This document shows positions 11,973 to 19,474 of a stretch of 32,794 nt of DNA, piece by piece; positions within the stretch are counted from its first letter, which is position 1, and each line of letters starts with the position of its first letter. Source of the DNA: Kiritimatiellia bacterium (GTDB lineage Bacteria > Verrucomicrobiota > Kiritimatiellia > RFP12 > UBA1067); assembly GCA_017613085.1 (NCBI GenBank), contig JAGAEL010000015.1, forward strand, positions 1 to 32,794, written 5' to 3'. The position numbers and the translations under genes are program-made. The notes below the pieces were generated by a model. That model did not search any database and had not been told where the DNA came from. It saw only the letters and a program-made list of their open reading frames with translations.

Positions 11973-12110
11973 CAGAGATGAAAGGGATAGAAGGGATGAC
12001 AGGGATGAAAGGGATAGAAGGGATGGTGAGGGATGAAAGGGATAGAAGGGATGAAAGGGACGGTGCAATCCCTTTGCTCCCTTTAATCCCTTTACCCATC
12101 CTTCCCCATC
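11953..12110 (+). repeat. Purine-rich GGGAT repeat with hairpin, left copy
   Basis: This region consists of short degenerate units built on GGGAT and GAAAGGGATA. It ends in an imperfect inverted repeat: a 25-base purine arm at 12036-12060 faces a 25-base pyrimidine arm at 12069-12093 (21 of 25 positions pair) around the 8-base loop CGGTGCAA. A near-copy of about 80 bases (from about 12018) recurs at 12813-12897 on the other side of the four-helix-bundle gene. The repeat also encodes the last codons of the DedA gene. Confidence 0.9.
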
Positions 12111-12146: not shown

Positions 12147-12824
12147 ATGTCTGACATCATTCTGCCACATTCGGGGTATCGAAAGCTGATCGCCTACAAG
12201 AAAAGCGATGTCATCTACCAAGGCACCGTGGTTTTCTGCCGACGCTTTCTGCCGTCGCACGGCGACCGCACCGTCGACCAGATGACACAGGCCGCACGTT
12301 CCTGTAAGCAGAACATTGCCGAGGGAAGTGCGGCTGCCGGAACGAGTCTTGAAACGCAACTGAAACTCACCAACGTAGCCCGTGCTACGCTCGACGAACT
12401 CCTTGAAGATTATCTTGACTACCTCAAGGTACACAACGCCGCAGAATGGGCGATGGAGGACGAAAAGAAGACCGCCGCCCGCAATTTTGCAAAAGAACAC
12501 GCCGACTGGGAAAGCTGGAAGGCGATTTTCGAGACCCGCCCGGCAGAGACAATCTGTAACCTGATGATTGTCTTGATCCAACAGACACGCTACCTTTTGG
12601 AAAAACTGCTCTCATGGCAAGAACAAGATTTCAAGGAGAAAGGCGGTGTCCGTGAACGTATGCACACCGCGCGTTCTGAAGTGCGCGCTGAATCATGGGA
12701 CAAGGCCATCTACTCGTATCTCGACCTTGCCACAGATGCCGCCGATCTTGAGCGGCGTACCGCCGAAATCGCCGACCGTGCCCGCCGCACGGCATACGGC
12801 ATCGCCAAGAGAAAGGGATGGTGA
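12147..12824 (+). CDS. Four-helix-bundle protein with suffix domain (S23/IVS-like)
   Basis: A 225-residue, mostly helical protein. The segment QAARSCKQNIAEGSAAAGTS matches the signature R-x5-NIAEG of the four-helix-bundle family related to proteins encoded in 23S rRNA intervening sequences. A second helical stretch follows, as in members with an extra C-terminal suffix domain. The cellular role of the family is not established. The ATG at 12147 has AAAGGA nine bases upstream. The gene stands between two copies of a hairpin-forming purine-rich repeat, and the right copy supplies its last codons (KGW and the stop). It looks like a mobile or duplicated cassette placed between the DedA and exosortase genes. 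Confidence 0.82.
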   Translation: MSDIILPHSGYRKLIAYKKSDVIYQGTVVFCRRFLPSHGDRTVDQMTQAARSCKQNIAEGSAAAGTSLETQLKLTNVARATLDELLEDYLDYLKVHNAAEWAMEDEKKTAARNFAKEHADWESWKAIFETRPAETICNLMIVLIQQTRYLLEKLLSWQEQDFKEKGGVRERMHTARSEVRAESWDKAIYSYLDLATDAADLERRTAEIADRARRTAYGIAKRKGW

Positions 12825-12897
12825 GGGATGAAAGGGATGAGGGATGAAAGGGATGAAAGGGACGGTGCAATCCCTTTGCTCCCTTCAATCCCTTCAC
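12811..12897 (+). repeat. Purine-rich GGGAT repeat with hairpin, right copy
   Basis: This is a near-copy of the left repeat, with the same tandem GGGAT/GAAAGGGAT units, the same CGGTGCAA loop and the same pyrimidine arm (TCCCTTTGCTCCCTT). It overlaps the stop codon of the four-helix-bundle gene and, on the other strand, the stop codon of the exosortase gene. The hairpin could act as a two-way transcription barrier between these converging genes, though it lacks a T-run. Confidence 0.9.
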
Positions 12898-14237
12898 GCT
12901 CTTTCCGCAACGGTGACAATCCACCAGGGACCGGGGGATTTCCCGAAGAGGGCGTTGAAGAACCAGGCGGGGACGTCGCTAAAGGTCTGACCGGAAGCGT
13001 CGCGCGCTTGTTCGCGTACGCGGAGCGTTTCGTTACCGCGTCTTGCGGTGAATGTTGACCACGCGCCGTCTCCCTTTGTCTCCACGGTGATTGGGTCAAT
13101 CTTCCATCCGGTCGCTCTCAGGCAATACGCCGCGCCGTGGACCCTGTGGGTCGTCTTGTCTGTCCAGCGAAGAATCACCATGCGCCGTCCCGCTTGAAAC
13201 CGGGCGATCCTTCCCGGAAAAGCTTCCGCAAATTTCCGTTCGTCATCTTCAAGCGGTTCTTCTTTCAGCACGTCGCCGTCAAAGGTGGCCGGCCATCCCG
13301 GAAAGGTTGCGGGCGTGAAATCGGCACGGCGTTCCTTTGGATTCAGGAGGCAGAGAATCGCCGTCGCGGCAAATATCGCGGATGCCGCCAACCGGACGAG
13401 TAGGGGACTCGGTGTTCTCCTGTCGGCTGGTAAAGGACATCGCTTGGGAACGGCAACGGTCACGAGAATCAGAGCGGGAAGAAAGGTAAAACAACCGACC
13501 AGTGCGTGTGCGGTCGTTCCAAGTGTCAAGCCGGCCACCGTCAGGAAGGTGAGAAGCGCCACACGTAGGATGTTGCCGAGGCATACGGCGGCGACCGTCA
13601 ACAGACAGGTCTTCGTCGTTCCCCACAACGTCTGTTTTCGCAGATACGCAAGAACCAGCGCGAACACGATACCCGTTCCGAGCATCCGCACCCCCGCACA
13701 GGGGGCGTCCACCCACGAAGTTACGCCGTTCACGGTCAGCTCCATCCCGTTTTGCACGACGGTCAATCCCGTCAGGCGCAGAAGCCAGGTCGCCGCCGTC
13801 GTTGAGACCACGCGCAACGGGAAACCGAGAAACATGTCGAGGATGAGTAACGAGGGCAGTCCGGCGAGCGCAAGCCCGGCGAGCGGGGCGGGGAAGGGAC
13901 GGTCTGCCGTCCCTTCGGGCAGGAGCAGCGGTACCCCGCCAACCAACCCGAACGCGCCGCAAAGCGTGATCGGAAGATGGGGACGTGTGAGGGAAAAGGC
14001 GAGAAGCCCGGAGACGGCCGCTACGTATTTCCATACGGGAAGTGCGACCGCCCCGCGTCCGGCGTGCCGCCATGACATCGCCGTGAAAACAACCAGTGCG
14101 ATCCACGCGACGCTCCCTGCGTCGAACGGTTCCTGCATCCGGGTGAAAAGCCAACGCCAGAGCGGCCACAGGACCCAACCCCAGAGGAAGACCGCGCCTC
14201 CGCGTTCGCCCCAAGCCGCAAGGTTATGCACACGCAT
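12894..14237 (-). CDS. Exosortase with C-terminal soluble domain
   Basis: An integral membrane cysteine transpeptidase of the exosortase/archaeosortase family, 447 residues. It has about eight hydrophobic segments in the first 290 residues. The expected catalytic residues are present: Cys180 in DAPCAG, Arg225 in GNILRV and His244 in TAHALVG. A soluble C-terminal region of about 150 residues follows and recalls the EpsI-like domain fused to some exosortases. Exosortases cut proteins at a PEP-like C-terminal signal and probably hand them to the envelope. The likely substrate is the VIT-domain protein encoded just upstream; the genes overlap by 14 bases. The ATG at 14237 is preferred over an adjacent GTG because GGAGG lies 10 bases before it. 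The stop lies inside the purine-rich repeat. Confidence 0.88.
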   Translation of the reverse strand: MRVHNLAAWGERGGAVFLWGWVLWPLWRWLFTRMQEPFDAGSVAWIALVVFTAMSWRHAGRGAVALPVWKYVAAVSGLLAFSLTRPHLPITLCGAFGLVGGVPLLLPEGTADRPFPAPLAGLALAGLPSLLILDMFLGFPLRVVSTTAATWLLRLTGLTVVQNGMELTVNGVTSWVDAPCAGVRMLGTGIVFALVLAYLRKQTLWGTTKTCLLTVAAVCLGNILRVALLTFLTVAGLTLGTTAHALVGCFTFLPALILVTVAVPKRCPLPADRRTPSPLLVRLAASAIFAATAILCLLNPKERRADFTPATFPGWPATFDGDVLKEEPLEDDERKFAEAFPGRIARFQAGRRMVILRWTDKTTHRVHGAAYCLRATGWKIDPITVETKGDGAWSTFTARRGNETLRVREQARDASGQTFSDVPAWFFNALFGKSPGPWWIVTVAERA

Positions 14238-16602
14238 CACGCTTGCGCCTCCGTGCGATCAGCGCAACGGACAGAACCATGCCGGCGACAAGCAGGCAGC
14301 AGACCATTTCCGGTTCCGGAATCGTGGGGACTTTTGACGCATTTACCGTCGGTACGGAATCCGCGTCCGCCTGTTTGAGGTTGTTCTCCTTATACTGCTC
14401 GGCGGTTTCCAACACAACCGCGCCGGTCACGGGCGTAACGATCTGCCAAGGGAGGGCGAGTTTTTGGGCCTTCTCCAGTGTTTTCGGATCGCCTACGCGG
14501 TAGACGCGGCAAACCTCTTCCGATGCCCAGAGCCGCCCGATATGCTTGCCGCAGGGGACGGCGTTGGACGGAATCTGCGCCTTGGGCGTGAAGGTGCGCG
14601 TGATACGCCACCCCTCCGCGCCCCATGCTTCAAAGACGCCCTTCAAGGCGCTGGTCCCGTTGTTGAGCGTTTCCGCCGTACAGGAGGATACGGAGGGGAG
14701 CGAGGCGAGAGAAGAGGTAATCGCGTCCCTGCCCGGCGCGACTTGGCAGAGGAACATGCGGATCTTCTCCGCCTTGGCGAGCTTCGAGGAAAGGAAGTCC
14801 GCCGTCTGCGAAACGAGCGGTTGCTCATGGTGGATCCATACGAGTGCGGAGGGTTTGTCCGAGGCGGCGAGCTTGCCTGTGGCCGAGACAAGCGTCGTGA
14901 GGTTACACCGTCCGCCGGCGAATCCGTGGGCGCGGATCGCCTTCTCGATCACGGCGTTCCGCTGCTTGTCGCCGGCGCGGGAAGTTACGGTCGGCTCGTG
15001 GATTGCTTCGTCACCGACAATCCAGAGTTCGAGGTCGATAGAGGCGGGGATGGAGGCAATCGCCTCGATTGTGTTTTGGGCGAATGGCGCCATTACGCCG
15101 GAGGCGTCCAGTACCACCGCGACACGTTCCGGCATCCATCCTTTTGCACGTTCCATGCGTTGCACGACGGCGGCATCGTTGAGCGGCGCGAATTTCTCGT
15201 CGGCGTACACCGTGATGGAGGCGGGCGGGGTGTCGAGCGTTTTTACCTCGTCGCAAGGAAGGCCGAGCAGATCGCCGGGGATGCTGAAGTTTTGGGCGAG
15301 GATTGCCGGGGCGCGTAGACGCGCCTTGCCGTCGGAGGTTACGGCAAGCGGCGTGGTGATGCCGATCCTCACCTTCATCTCGCCCTTCGGCGGCACAGGG
15401 AAGCATTGCATCTGTACCTGGTCGGGACCGGACACATTGACCAGCACGGGGTCGCGCCGGCGATGCACCACGCTTTCATAGGCGCGGCGCACCTGGCCCC
15501 TCGTGCCGAATGCGGCTTCCTGTTCCTCGCCGTTCACCCACAGCGTCAGACGTGAAACCACGCCGCCGGGCGGCAGGGCGATCCGTGCGCGCGCTTCGGC
15601 TTCTCCCCGTTCCTTCGTGTTCTCAAAGACGAGTGTCCATTCCGCATAACCTGTGCAACCGGGAAGGTCAAACGAAGTCTCGTAGTTCGACCCTTTGAGC
15701 GAAAGGTTCTCCAGAACACCGCCGATCTTCTCGCCGCCGGTGAAAAAGTCGAAACGTAGGGGATGGCGCCGCCCGCCCCAGTCTTCGAAATCGTCCGGGT
15801 TTTCGCCCGTCACCCGGTAGTGTATCACCCTGCATTTCTCCTGCGGAATGTCCATCCCTAAGTCTCCGAGGAGAAACCGGTGCGGCGCAAACCACCAAGG
15901 CAAGTTGCCCCGGTTGTTGTACGTCTTGAGGTCGGACAACGGGTTGGCGCGTAGCAATCGGACGCCTTTCGCCGATTTTGCGGAATCGTCGGAAGCCGCC
16001 ATCGACCAGGCGACCACATTCGTTAGGACACCGGTCAGGGCGATCAACCAGGCCGCGCCCGCCACCGCCATGCCCCATCCGAATCCGCGCATCGCCGGCT
16101 TTTGCTCCCCCGTTTCCGCCGCCAGCCTTTTCGCGGAGCCCCGCGCAAACCCGAACGAGGCGATGGCGGCGCAGGGCGGTGCGGCAGGCAACAGGCCCAG
16201 GAAGCCGATGCCGAAGTACCAGAATACCATGAGGCATCCCAGCAGTCCAAAGACCGTCAACGGGAGGAAGAAGACCGCGTAGACGACGGAGACGGCGAAC
16301 GAGAAACCGCACAGTGCCCGTGGAATGGGGCTGTGGACGTCCCATCCCTTCAGACGGCAAAGCCAGGCCACGAAATTGAACAGAGGCACGACGCTTATCA
16401 TCACCTTCAGCAAAAGATTCGGCATGGGGTCCCAGAACATCTCGCCGCACGCGCCGGTGCAAAGTTCCATACCCACGGCGCATACGGGAAGCAGTACCCC
16501 GAAAAACAAAGAGGTTACCGGATGTGCCAGAAATCTGCGGAAAAGATTCGGACGGCGTTCGCGCCGGTCGAATTGGACGGTCGTTTCTTCTTGTGGTTCC
16601 AT
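14224..16602 (-). CDS. VIT/vWA-domain membrane protein with PEP-CTERM sorting tail
   Basis: A 792-residue protein. The first 220 residues hold five or six hydrophobic segments. Next comes a VIT-like region at about residues 330-430 (VSRLTLWVNGEE, RAYESVVHRRRDPVLV), then a von Willebrand A-like region from about 488 (RVAVVLDASGVM). The MIDAS motif there is degenerate (DxSG rather than DxSxS). The C-terminus reads IPEPEM, a hydrophobic helix, then ARRRKR: a typical PEP-CTERM signal. Single VIT-domain targets encoded next to their own exosortase are known, for example in the XrtN system. The arrangement here matches that idea, though the subtype is not certain. The ATG at 16602 has AGGAG 7 bases upstream. 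Its role on the cell surface is unknown. Confidence 0.85.
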   Translation of the reverse strand: MEPQEETTVQFDRRERRPNLFRRFLAHPVTSLFFGVLLPVCAVGMELCTGACGEMFWDPMPNLLLKVMISVVPLFNFVAWLCRLKGWDVHSPIPRALCGFSFAVSVVYAVFFLPLTVFGLLGCLMVFWYFGIGFLGLLPAAPPCAAIASFGFARGSAKRLAAETGEQKPAMRGFGWGMAVAGAAWLIALTGVLTNVVAWSMAASDDSAKSAKGVRLLRANPLSDLKTYNNRGNLPWWFAPHRFLLGDLGMDIPQEKCRVIHYRVTGENPDDFEDWGGRRHPLRFDFFTGGEKIGGVLENLSLKGSNYETSFDLPGCTGYAEWTLVFENTKERGEAEARARIALPPGGVVSRLTLWVNGEEQEAAFGTRGQVRRAYESVVHRRRDPVLVNVSGPDQVQMQCFPVPPKGEMKVRIGITTPLAVTSDGKARLRAPAILAQNFSIPGDLLGLPCDEVKTLDTPPASITVYADEKFAPLNDAAVVQRMERAKGWMPERVAVVLDASGVMAPFAQNTIEAIASIPASIDLELWIVGDEAIHEPTVTSRAGDKQRNAVIEKAIRAHGFAGGRCNLTTLVSATGKLAASDKPSALVWIHHEQPLVSQTADFLSSKLAKAEKIRMFLCQVAPGRDAITSSLASLPSVSSCTAETLNNGTSALKGVFEAWGAEGWRITRTFTPKAQIPSNAVPCGKHIGRLWASEEVCRVYRVGDPKTLEKAQKLALPWQIVTPVTGAVVLETAEQYKENNLKQADADSVPTVNASKVPTIPEPEMVCCLLVAGMVLSVALIARRRKRDACA

Positions 16603-17932: not shown

Positions 17933-19444
17933 TCAGGGGATTTCGACGAAAGGTCTGAAAAACGTGTCTTGGAAAAGACGATCCACCGCTTCTTTTTTCT
18001 GACCGATGCTCAGAAGCAGTTCGCAGAGGGCGAGCGTTTCTTCGGGCGTTTCGACGTTGCCGATCCAGTCGACTTTCTCTTTGATGCCGAGCCTCCCGAA
18101 CGGAAGGTCGATACTCCTTCCCCGCGCTTCCAGGGAAAGGGAATCCTCGTTCACGGAGACGATCTTGACATCGTATTTCTTTCCGCCGTACTGAAGGGGG
18201 AGTGTCTTGCCGATTTTGGGTTCCAGACGTTTCCGCAGAAGCTCCTTCTGTGACGGTGCCTGCCGGAATACGGCTTTGATGCGATCCGGCAGGGCGGGAT
18301 CGGACGCGGCCGCCTTCTGCGCTTCCAGAAGCCCTTGGTCAAGGAAGAGGGCGACCAGTTTGCGTTGCGCGGCGATGGCGGCGACATCCGGCTCGGATTT
18401 TTCGGGTTCCTCCGTCGTTGCGGCGGGAAGGGCTTCATCCGAGACGGCGGCCTGGCTACCCTTTTCGTCCGCCGATTCCCAGGCGGCCGGGAGTTTGGAG
18501 GAAATCACCTCCTGCACCTGTTCCTTTGCCTGGCGGACGGGCGCGAGGACGCGGTTCGTGAGAGCCGTCTTCGAGGGAGAGGAACGGAACCAGAAGAGCC
18601 CGGCGAACCAGGCGGCAAGCAGAAGCCAAAGGATCGCCTCGTGCCGGCGTCGGTCTTCCTGTCGCTGCCGTTCGTCTTCCGCGAAGATCCCGACCAGAGG
18701 TTTGGCGGTGTCTGCGGAACCCTGGACCGTCCGTTGCATCCGGTTCCGCTGGCGCGGTGTCCCGTCTGCGGCAAGCAAGCCCCGTAAACTTTCGAGGACG
18801 GCATCCCAGCCGAGAAACCGTGTTTGCGGATCTTGCGAGAGGAGCCGTTCCTTGACGGCGGCGATGTCCTCCGGCAACCTTCCGTCCGCACCGGCACAGA
18901 GGCGGTGGAGAAGGGAGCCTAGGCCGATCATGTCGTCGCAGGGCATCAGGCCGTCCGTTTCCTCCGACCGATCGGCCTGCTCGAACTCGGTGATTTTGAT
19001 CCCGCTGTTCACGTCGCGACGCAAACTGGCCGCCGAGAGGTTGTGCAGGACGAGGTTGAAGTGCGCCCAGAGGAATGCGACGCCTTCCGCCGTCTGCAGG
19101 ACGAGCGTGAGCGCCTCTTGCCGCGTGAAGGTCGCGCCGGCGTCCAGTTCCTCCTGCAAGGTCGTTTCCGTCGTCGCCTCCGTCACGATGCAATGGCATC
19201 CGGGGGTGCTGATGATGTCGAAAACCGAAATCACCTTGTCGCTTTTCGCATGGGCGAGGAGGCGCCCGATGTCGAGAAAATACGCAACCACGTCCGGGCG
19301 GTCTTCGTATTCCGGCTTCAGCAGACGCAGTTGGACATTCCGTCCCAGCGACTGTTGAAGCGCCTGGTACGTTACGGCGTAGCCGGTTTCCCGGATCTTC
19401 CCCTGAAGGGTAAAACCATGTTTTTCTAATTCATCGGTGTTCAC
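17933..19444 (-). CDS. Membrane-anchored pseudokinase-like protein
   Basis: A 503-residue protein. The N-terminal 240 residues resemble a serine/threonine kinase fold, but the catalytic sites are lost. The VAIK lysine position reads VQLR, the HRD loop reads HNLSAASL at residues 134-141, and the DFG motif is replaced by EFE at 153-155. One transmembrane helix lies at about 270-286 (ILWLLLAAWFAGLFWF). It is followed by an acidic linker and a C-terminal domain of about 160 residues, presumably outside the membrane. A signalling or scaffolding role is plausible but not shown. The start is taken as the GTG at 19444, because the in-frame codons upstream are the TATACT promoter box itself. The gene diverges from recD2 across 46 bases. 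Confidence 0.7.
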   Translation of the reverse strand: MNTDELEKHGFTLQGKIRETGYAVTYQALQQSLGRNVQLRLLKPEYEDRPDVVAYFLDIGRLLAHAKSDKVISVFDIISTPGCHCIVTEATTETTLQEELDAGATFTRQEALTLVLQTAEGVAFLWAHFNLVLHNLSAASLRRDVNSGIKITEFEQADRSEETDGLMPCDDMIGLGSLLHRLCAGADGRLPEDIAAVKERLLSQDPQTRFLGWDAVLESLRGLLAADGTPRQRNRMQRTVQGSADTAKPLVGIFAEDERQRQEDRRRHEAILWLLLAAWFAGLFWFRSSPSKTALTNRVLAPVRQAKEQVQEVISSKLPAAWESADEKGSQAAVSDEALPAATTEEPEKSEPDVAAIAAQRKLVALFLDQGLLEAQKAAASDPALPDRIKAVFRQAPSQKELLRKRLEPKIGKTLPLQYGGKKYDVKIVSVNEDSLSLEARGRSIDLPFGRLGIKEKVDWIGNVETPEETLALCELLLSIGQKKEAVDRLFQDTFFRPFVEIP

Positions 19445-19450
19445 GTCTTT

Positions 19451-19459
19451 AGTATAGCA
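19451..19459 (-). promoter_or_regulatory. Extended -10 box of the pseudokinase gene
   Basis: On the minus strand the sequence reads TGCTATACT (19459-19451), an extended -10 element. It is followed by only six bases (AAAGAC) before the GTG start codon. No convincing -35 is present, which is usual with a strong extended -10. The spacing implies a leaderless message. Confidence 0.65.
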
Positions 19460-19474
19460 CAAACGGAAGGGATG

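What the first reader, a model, noticed from the sequence alone, without database searches (positions are those of the whole stretch)
12894..16602. Dedicated exosortase and VIT/vWA target as a two-gene surface system
The exosortase keeps its Cys-Arg-His residues and overlaps the gene of a VIT/vWA protein with a clear PEP-CTERM tail. No other PEP-CTERM protein appears in the window, so this may be a one-enzyme, one-substrate pair like the XrtN type. The exosortase has a fused C-terminal soluble domain and the vWA MIDAS site is degenerate. Together these suggest a distinct subtype in this lineage.
Basis: partly seen in the sequence, partly recalled or inferred. Interest (0 to 1): 0.55.

Follow-up and report, generated by a model that had tools for sequence, protein, structure and literature searches.

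The report
Dedicated exosortase with one VIT substrate
Two overlapping genes encode a membrane-embedded protein-cutting enzyme and the single membrane protein it most likely trims; the same pair recurs in several bacterial phyla and is close to, but outside, the named pairs of this kind.

Summary
The pair is real. An exosortase (12897-14240, minus) with intact Cys181-Arg226-His245 overlaps the 3' end of a VIT/vWA protein (14227-16602, minus) with five N-terminal membrane helices and a PEP-CTERM tail. It recurs: 12 of 60 related genomes carry it, always adjacent, as do 37 of 79 named loci holding the VIT relative, in about seven phyla by record title.

Other genomes still favour one enzyme, one substrate. 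Of nine genomes with no clear exosortase besides the VIT-paired one, one (MAG G028) has a PEP-CTERM match over the Pfam cut-off, against 43 of 44 genomes with another exosortase.

No NCBIfam exosortase subtype is met (best XrtQ, 92.6 of 270 bits). A genuine XrtQ sits beside a different VIT/vWA protein. The two 'distinct' traits are not lineage-specific: EpsH also has a soluble domain, and the altered MIDAS is family-wide. Verdict: unnamed, widespread variant of a known kind.

The parts
14227..16602 (-). VIT/vWA PEP-CTERM substrate gene, 792 aa (stop codon 14224-14226)
15997..16545 (-). N-terminal region with five membrane helices (residues about 20-202)
   Evidence: model secondary structure; sequence hydrophobicity
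15364..15642 (-). VIT domain (residues 321-413)
   Evidence: PF08487 39.0 bits; TIGR04477 best stretch 318-423
14629..15126 (-). vWA-like domain (residues about 493-658): D499/S501 kept, Thr and third Asp of the MIDAS lost, H591 conserved
14227..14331 (-). PEP-CTERM tail: IPEP, membrane helix, RRRKR (residues 758-792)
   Evidence: sequence; P762-E763-P764 invariant in 58 of 58
12897..14240 (-). Exosortase gene, 448 aa (stop codon 12894-12896), overlapping the VIT gene
13455..14189 (-). Exosortase membrane core (PF09721), with C181 (13698-13700), R226 (13563-13565), H245 (13506-13508)
12897..13304 (-). Soluble C-terminal domain, EpsI/DUF3485-like (residues about 313-448)
   Evidence: relative L103 matches PF11984 at 20.3 bits (cut-off 26.1), window piece not reported; hhalign to EpsH C-termini weak, E 0.002, probability 13.8%

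Best explanation
A self-contained two-gene cassette: an inner-membrane exosortase, translationally coupled to its single substrate. The VIT protein inserts with its N-terminus inside, five N-terminal TM helices, a periplasmic VIT-vWA body and a C-terminal PEP-CTERM helix (topology inferred from the model and the basic ends). The exosortase, with its Cys/Arg/His site at the periplasmic face, cuts near PEP and joins the new C-terminus to an unknown acceptor (inferred from the exosortase family, not shown). The product stays anchored by its N-terminal helices, so the enzyme more likely modifies or tethers the C-terminus of a membrane-held VIT-vWA scaffold than releases a surface protein. The genome's ordinary PEP-CTERM proteins are probably served by the separate EpsH-type enzyme. 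The cassette belongs to an unnamed exosortase subtype related to XrtQ, with a substrate nearer to XrtN's.
For: Adjacency: all 12 strong relatives of this exosortase in 60 related genomes lie directly 3' of the VIT gene. Of 79 named loci, 37 have an exosortase 3' of the VIT; with the window 38 of 38 are on the same strand, mostly overlapping. No other gene family is conserved around the pair in 12 loci, except a kinase-like gene in 3. Exclusivity: VIT genes without an adjacent exosortase lie in genomes with an exosortase elsewhere in 32 of 33 cases. G073 and G074 (Pla86 and Poly30, complete chromosomes by title), G078, G081, G082, G084 and G088 have only the paired enzyme, and G083 the paired one plus a fragment; none of these eight has a PEP-CTERM match over cut-off, while 43 of 44 genomes with another exosortase do. 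Counting G028 as the ninth: 1 of 9 vs 43 of 44, Fisher p 9e-8, uncorrected for kinship. A search with the own EpsH protein found nothing in G028, G073, G074, G082, G084. Placement: XrtQ 92.6/270, XrtT 85.2/250, XrtN 58.8/200; all paired enzymes plus XrtQ split from EpsH at 100/99. Fold.
Against: G028 (92% complete MAG) has only the paired exosortase detected, yet 8 PEP-CTERM matches: either its EpsH gene is missing from the assembly or the paired enzyme serves them. The window's own genome has at least three other PEP-CTERM proteins and is only 67% complete. The PEP-CTERM model misses many VIT tails, so other substrates with unusual tails could be missed. Paired tails differ from unpaired ones (median span from PEP to basic cluster 18 vs 16, fewer glycines), but that cannot be told apart from phylogeny (3 supported independent pairs, median sign-test p 1). 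Related VITs do without a neighbouring exosortase: 42 of 79 loci, 36 of them with at least 1 kb of downstream DNA. No experiment shows cleavage.
Confidence: 0.7

Rival explanations
1. The paired exosortase is a second general enzyme that shares the genome's PEP-CTERM pool with EpsH; adjacency to the VIT gene is only operon history.
For: The own genome has at least three ordinary PEP-CTERM proteins; G028 has 8 PEP-CTERM matches with only the paired enzyme detected.
Against: 0 of 8 other genomes without a clear second exosortase have a PEP-CTERM match over cut-off, two complete chromosomes among them; adjacency is kept across phyla while other neighbours change.
Confidence: 0.15
2. It is simply a divergent member of XrtN or XrtQ, that is, a described subtype with its described partner.
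For: Best NCBIfam models are XrtQ for the enzyme and TIGR04477 (XrtN system) for the VIT; 9 of 10 paired relatives tested score best on XrtQ, 145.6-190.8 bits.
Against: All are below the curated cut-offs (270 for XrtQ, 250 for TIGR04477, 200 for XrtN). The one XrtQ over cut-off (324.3 bits) has a TIGR03788-type partner with signal peptide and intact MIDAS. XrtN sequences could not be fetched, so XrtN is not excluded by a tree.
Confidence: 0.3
3. The exosortase homologue acts as a regulated intramembrane protease or chaperone for the VIT protein, without transfer to an acceptor.
For: The substrate stays anchored by five N-terminal helices, so sorting to the surface is not an obvious outcome.
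Against: Cys, Arg and His are invariant in 29 of 29, as in the EpsH family, for which a transpeptidase function was proposed (PMC1569441, passages read).
Confidence: 0.2

Closest known systems
Exosortase Q (XrtQ, NF012182)
   Same: Closest named enzyme model; the XrtQ found here also has a soluble C-terminal domain and lies directly 3' of a VIT/vWA protein with a PEP-CTERM tail.
   Different: Window enzyme 92.6 bits of 270. The XrtQ partner is a signal-peptide VIT/vWA protein of TIGR03788 type with an intact MIDAS; the window's partner has five N-terminal TM helices and an altered MIDAS.
Exosortase N with its VIT target (XrtN TIGR04476, TIGR04477)
   Same: Nearest named substrate model (107.5 bits in 3 stretches); dedicated one-to-one design (recalled, not from a call).
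   Different: Both below cut-off (58.8 of 200; 107.5 of 250). XrtN sequences themselves were not available for a tree.
Exosortase K / MSEP-CTERM (TIGR04287, TIGR04286)
   Same: Another exosortase next to a VIT protein, present in the same family of genomes (L073, L074: MSEP-CTERM 233.3 and 334 bits of 150).
   Different: Short exosortase (about 180 aa); tails seen there lack PEP; the window VIT scores 36.1 of 150.
EpsH-type exosortase with EpsI domain (own genome C67, L001)
   Same: Same enzyme superfamily and a C-terminal EpsI/DUF3485 domain.
   Different: Separate branch at 100/99; its type goes with PEP-CTERM proteins in other genomes.
[quoted passage not shown]
   Same: Same VIT plus vWA fold over 595 columns; also trimmed at its C-terminus (recalled).
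   Different: Animal plasma protein; no PEP-CTERM, no exosortase.

Membership tests
Exosortase superfamily | PF09721 / TIGR04178 match over cut-off | tested here: met
   66.6 of 25.7 bits; 37.9 of 23 bits
Exosortase superfamily | Cys, Arg, His active-site residues | tested here: met
   C181, R226, H245 invariant in 29 of 29
EpsH exosortase (TIGR02602) | model over cut-off | tested here: not met
   48.4 of 105.55 bits
XrtQ | NF012182 over cut-off | tested here: not met
   92.6 of 270 bits
XrtQ | partner of TIGR03788 type (known to me from one XrtQ locus only) | tested here: not met
   XrtQ partner 405.5 bits on TIGR03788; window VIT 18.7 bits
XrtN system | TIGR04476 enzyme and TIGR04477 target over cut-off | tested here: not met
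   58.8 of 200 and 107.5 of 250 bits
XrtN system | enzyme falls in the XrtN clade of a tree | not tested
XrtT / XrtO | NF033770 / TIGR04489 over cut-off | tested here: not met
   85.2 of 250; 47.4 of 250 bits
XrtK / MSEP-CTERM | TIGR04286 target over cut-off | tested here: not met
   36.1 of 150 bits
PEP-CTERM substrate | PEP motif, one TM helix, basic C-terminus | tested here: met
   sequence, PEP invariant in 58 of 58, helix 764-791
PEP-CTERM substrate | PF07589 or TIGR02595 match | tested here: not met
   not reported for the window protein
One enzyme, one substrate | no other substrate processed by the enzyme | tested here: inconclusive
   8 of 9 genomes without a clear second exosortase lack PEP-CTERM matches over cut-off, G028 does not

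The most novel reading that the evidence does not exclude
This exosortase does not export its substrate at all: it modifies or covalently tethers the C-terminus of a membrane-held VIT-vWA scaffold whose metal site is non-canonical (Asp-x-Ser with a conserved His in place of the third MIDAS Asp). It would be a site-specific C-terminal ligase for one inner-membrane protein, similar in outcome to the C-terminal esterification of inter-alpha-inhibitor heavy chains to polysaccharide (recalled).
Probability: 0.3. Interest if true: 0.65.

Novelty: new variant of a known kind. Interest (0 to 1): 0.42.

Why it matters
Exosortase genomes commonly hold many PEP-CTERM proteins. A cassette with one enzyme and one substrate, present as the only exosortase in two complete planctomycete chromosomes, gives a very simple setting in which to identify the cleavage site, the acceptor and the specificity rule. 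It also raises the question why an exosortase would act on a protein that stays membrane-anchored.

Tried and rejected
Rejected: the fused soluble domain as a subtype mark (also in own EpsH; separate ORF in L089, L090, L095, L103, L121 and others). Rejected: the altered MIDAS as lineage trait. Rejected: an undetected exosortase beside the solitary VIT genes, for the 8 loci whose neighbours I read and by profile for all 42; one such genome (G065) does hold a second, paired VIT elsewhere (L188). Not shown: that the tail type depends on pairing. No exosortase structure was found by sequence, and the structural second look gave no match over Z 8. hhalign of the soluble domain to EpsH C-termini was weak. 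Promoter and terminator scans gave no more than shuffles. Literature: the searches listed no paper on an exosortase with a VIT partner (listings and starts of abstracts seen); the 2012 exosortase classification paper was seen only as a reference. PMC1569441, PMC12188702, PMC10936215 and PMC7468200 were read in passages only. That library lacks most subscription papers, so absence in print is not shown.

Rows dropped: VITs L140, L149 and L153 (truncated or masked) from the tail counts and the VIT tree, and 4 rows with little downstream DNA from the paired/solitary comparison; 8 of 17 EpsH rows from the exosortase tree, because a motif filter of mine failed on them; G106, with no exosortase detected, from the PEP-CTERM comparison. 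Alignment A3 held 58 of the 80 VITs at hand and A4 29 of the 38 exosortases at hand. NCBIfam labels were obtained for 10 of the 37 named paired exosortases.
Full report
What is there. The exosortase (448 aa, minus strand, 12897-14240 plus stop) starts inside the last codons of the VIT gene (792 aa, 14227-16602 plus stop), a 17-nt overlap counting the stop. PF09721 and TIGR04178 pass their cut-offs. The VIT domain passes PF08487. AlphaFold models are confident (exosortase pLDDT 89.5, VIT 90.8), and the VIT model's best solved match is inter-alpha-inhibitor heavy chain 1 over 595 columns, which supports the vWA part that no sequence model reported. The N-terminus has five membrane helices, the tail a sixth after IPEP, and both ends are basic, so both ends are probably cytoplasmic and the VIT-vWA body periplasmic (inference).

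Where it lies. The nearest named relatives are Kiritimatiellae MAGs, several from ruminant guts by their titles. The genome is a 2.43-Mb, 67%-complete assembly.

The pair is conserved as a pair. In 60 related genomes, the window enzyme finds strong relatives (best E below 1e-50) in 12, each next to the TIGR04477-type VIT. A VIT-profile scan of the species genome collection kept 79 loci: 37 have an exosortase directly 3', on the same strand; 42 have none nearby, 36 of these with at least 1 kb of downstream DNA. By record title the paired loci span Kiritimatiellae/Lentisphaerae/Verrucomicrobia, Planctomycetes, Acidobacteria, Proteobacteria, Desulfomonile, Sumerlaeaceae and Melainabacteria. Among 12 loci of the window's group no other gene is conserved, except a kinase-like gene in 3. 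The pairing label needs at least 10 changes on the VIT tree, 3 of them forced by starred branches, so the neighbouring exosortase has been gained or lost more than once.

One enzyme, one substrate? The literal refuter is partly met: the own genome has a second exosortase of EpsH type (564 aa, C67) and three PEP-CTERM proteins at E up to 0.05. Genomes with other inventories separate the two readings. Genomes whose VIT has no adjacent exosortase hold one elsewhere in 32 of 33 cases (13 of 13, 19 of 20). Seven genomes have the paired enzyme as their only PF09721 match (G073 Pla86, G074 Poly30, G078, G081, G082, G084, G088), and G083 has it plus a fragment. PF07589 at E up to 0.05 gives 0, 0, 0, 1, 1, 1, 0 and 0 matches in these eight, none over cut-off. 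G028, a 92%-complete MAG with only the paired enzyme detected, has 8 matches and is the exception. Of 44 searched genomes with another exosortase, 43 have a match over cut-off, the window's own genome being the one without (19.5 bits of 20.7). Fisher p is 9e-8, uncorrected for kinship. The PEP-CTERM model does not report the VIT tails of Pla86, Poly30 or G078 either, so it can also miss unusual second substrates.

Which subtype? No NCBIfam subtype is met. Of 10 paired relatives, 9 score best on XrtQ and one (L079) on XrtT, none over cut-off. One of 369 genomes of the class around an Accumulibacter has an XrtQ over cut-off; its 5' neighbour is a VIT/vWA protein with signal peptide, intact MIDAS and PEP-CTERM tail, of TIGR03788 type. 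So that XrtQ too is VIT-linked, with a different VIT. In a 49-row core tree all paired enzymes and XrtQ split from EpsH at 100/99, and the window's 15-row branch is monophyletic at 99/100; XrtQ's place among the paired enzymes is unresolved. In the window's own family of genomes there is also an MSEP-CTERM VIT beside a short XrtK-like exosortase (L074; L073 by genome coordinates).

The two traits offered as distinctive are not. The soluble domain: own EpsH has DUF3485 at 57 bits; in 17 of 38 paired loci it is fused by a motif filter (L093 appears fused too by its length and alignment), elsewhere it is a separate ORF, cut off or unresolved. Its kinship to EpsI is weak by profile (20.3 bits in one relative; hhalign probability 13.8%), though the H-x(4)-C-x(4)-G pattern is shared. 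The MIDAS: D499 58 of 58, S501 57 of 58, S503 14 of 58, H591 57 of 58 where Asp is usual, across paired and solitary members alike.

Tail specificity. Paired tails have a longer hydrophobic span (median 18 vs 16) and fewer glycines (1 vs 2) than solitary ones (38 vs 35 rows). This would suit an enzyme-specific signal, but the tree leaves only 3 supported independent comparisons and gives no support. It is a lead, not a result.

Mechanism. Shown: co-location, conservation of the catalytic triad, predicted membrane architecture of both partners, and lack of other PEP-CTERM matches where this is the only enzyme (one exception). Inferred: cleavage at PEP, an acceptor, translational coupling from the overlap, and continued anchoring of the product by the N-terminal helices.

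Noticed in passing
window 12009-12095 and 12813-12897, around the gene 12147-12821 (+): A four-helix-bundle gene (TIGR04258 68.4 bits of 40) is bracketed by GGGAT-rich direct repeats (93% over 58 nt). A 21-nt core of the repeat occurs only at these two places in the own genome and in none of 20 relatives.
   Followed up: partly
window 17936-19462 (-); L086 1580-2725; L091 163-3120: A kinase-like gene lies upstream of the VIT gene in 3 of 12 loci compared; it may be chance, as kinases are common.
   Followed up: no
L089 4985-6324, L090 2322-3631: In two Kiritimatiellae-group genomes the exosortase core and its soluble domain are separate overlapping ORFs, a split of a gene fused in their relatives.
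   Followed up: partly
L188 (G065:C34) and L108: One Verrucomicrobia genome has both a solitary VIT and a second VIT paired with an exosortase, with different tails.
   Followed up: partly
L073, L074, L194: MSEP-CTERM VIT proteins beside short XrtK-like exosortases in the window's family (L073, L074), and an XrtK (138 bits of 55) beside a TIGR03788-type VIT in L194: several exosortase types each have a VIT partner.
   Followed up: partly
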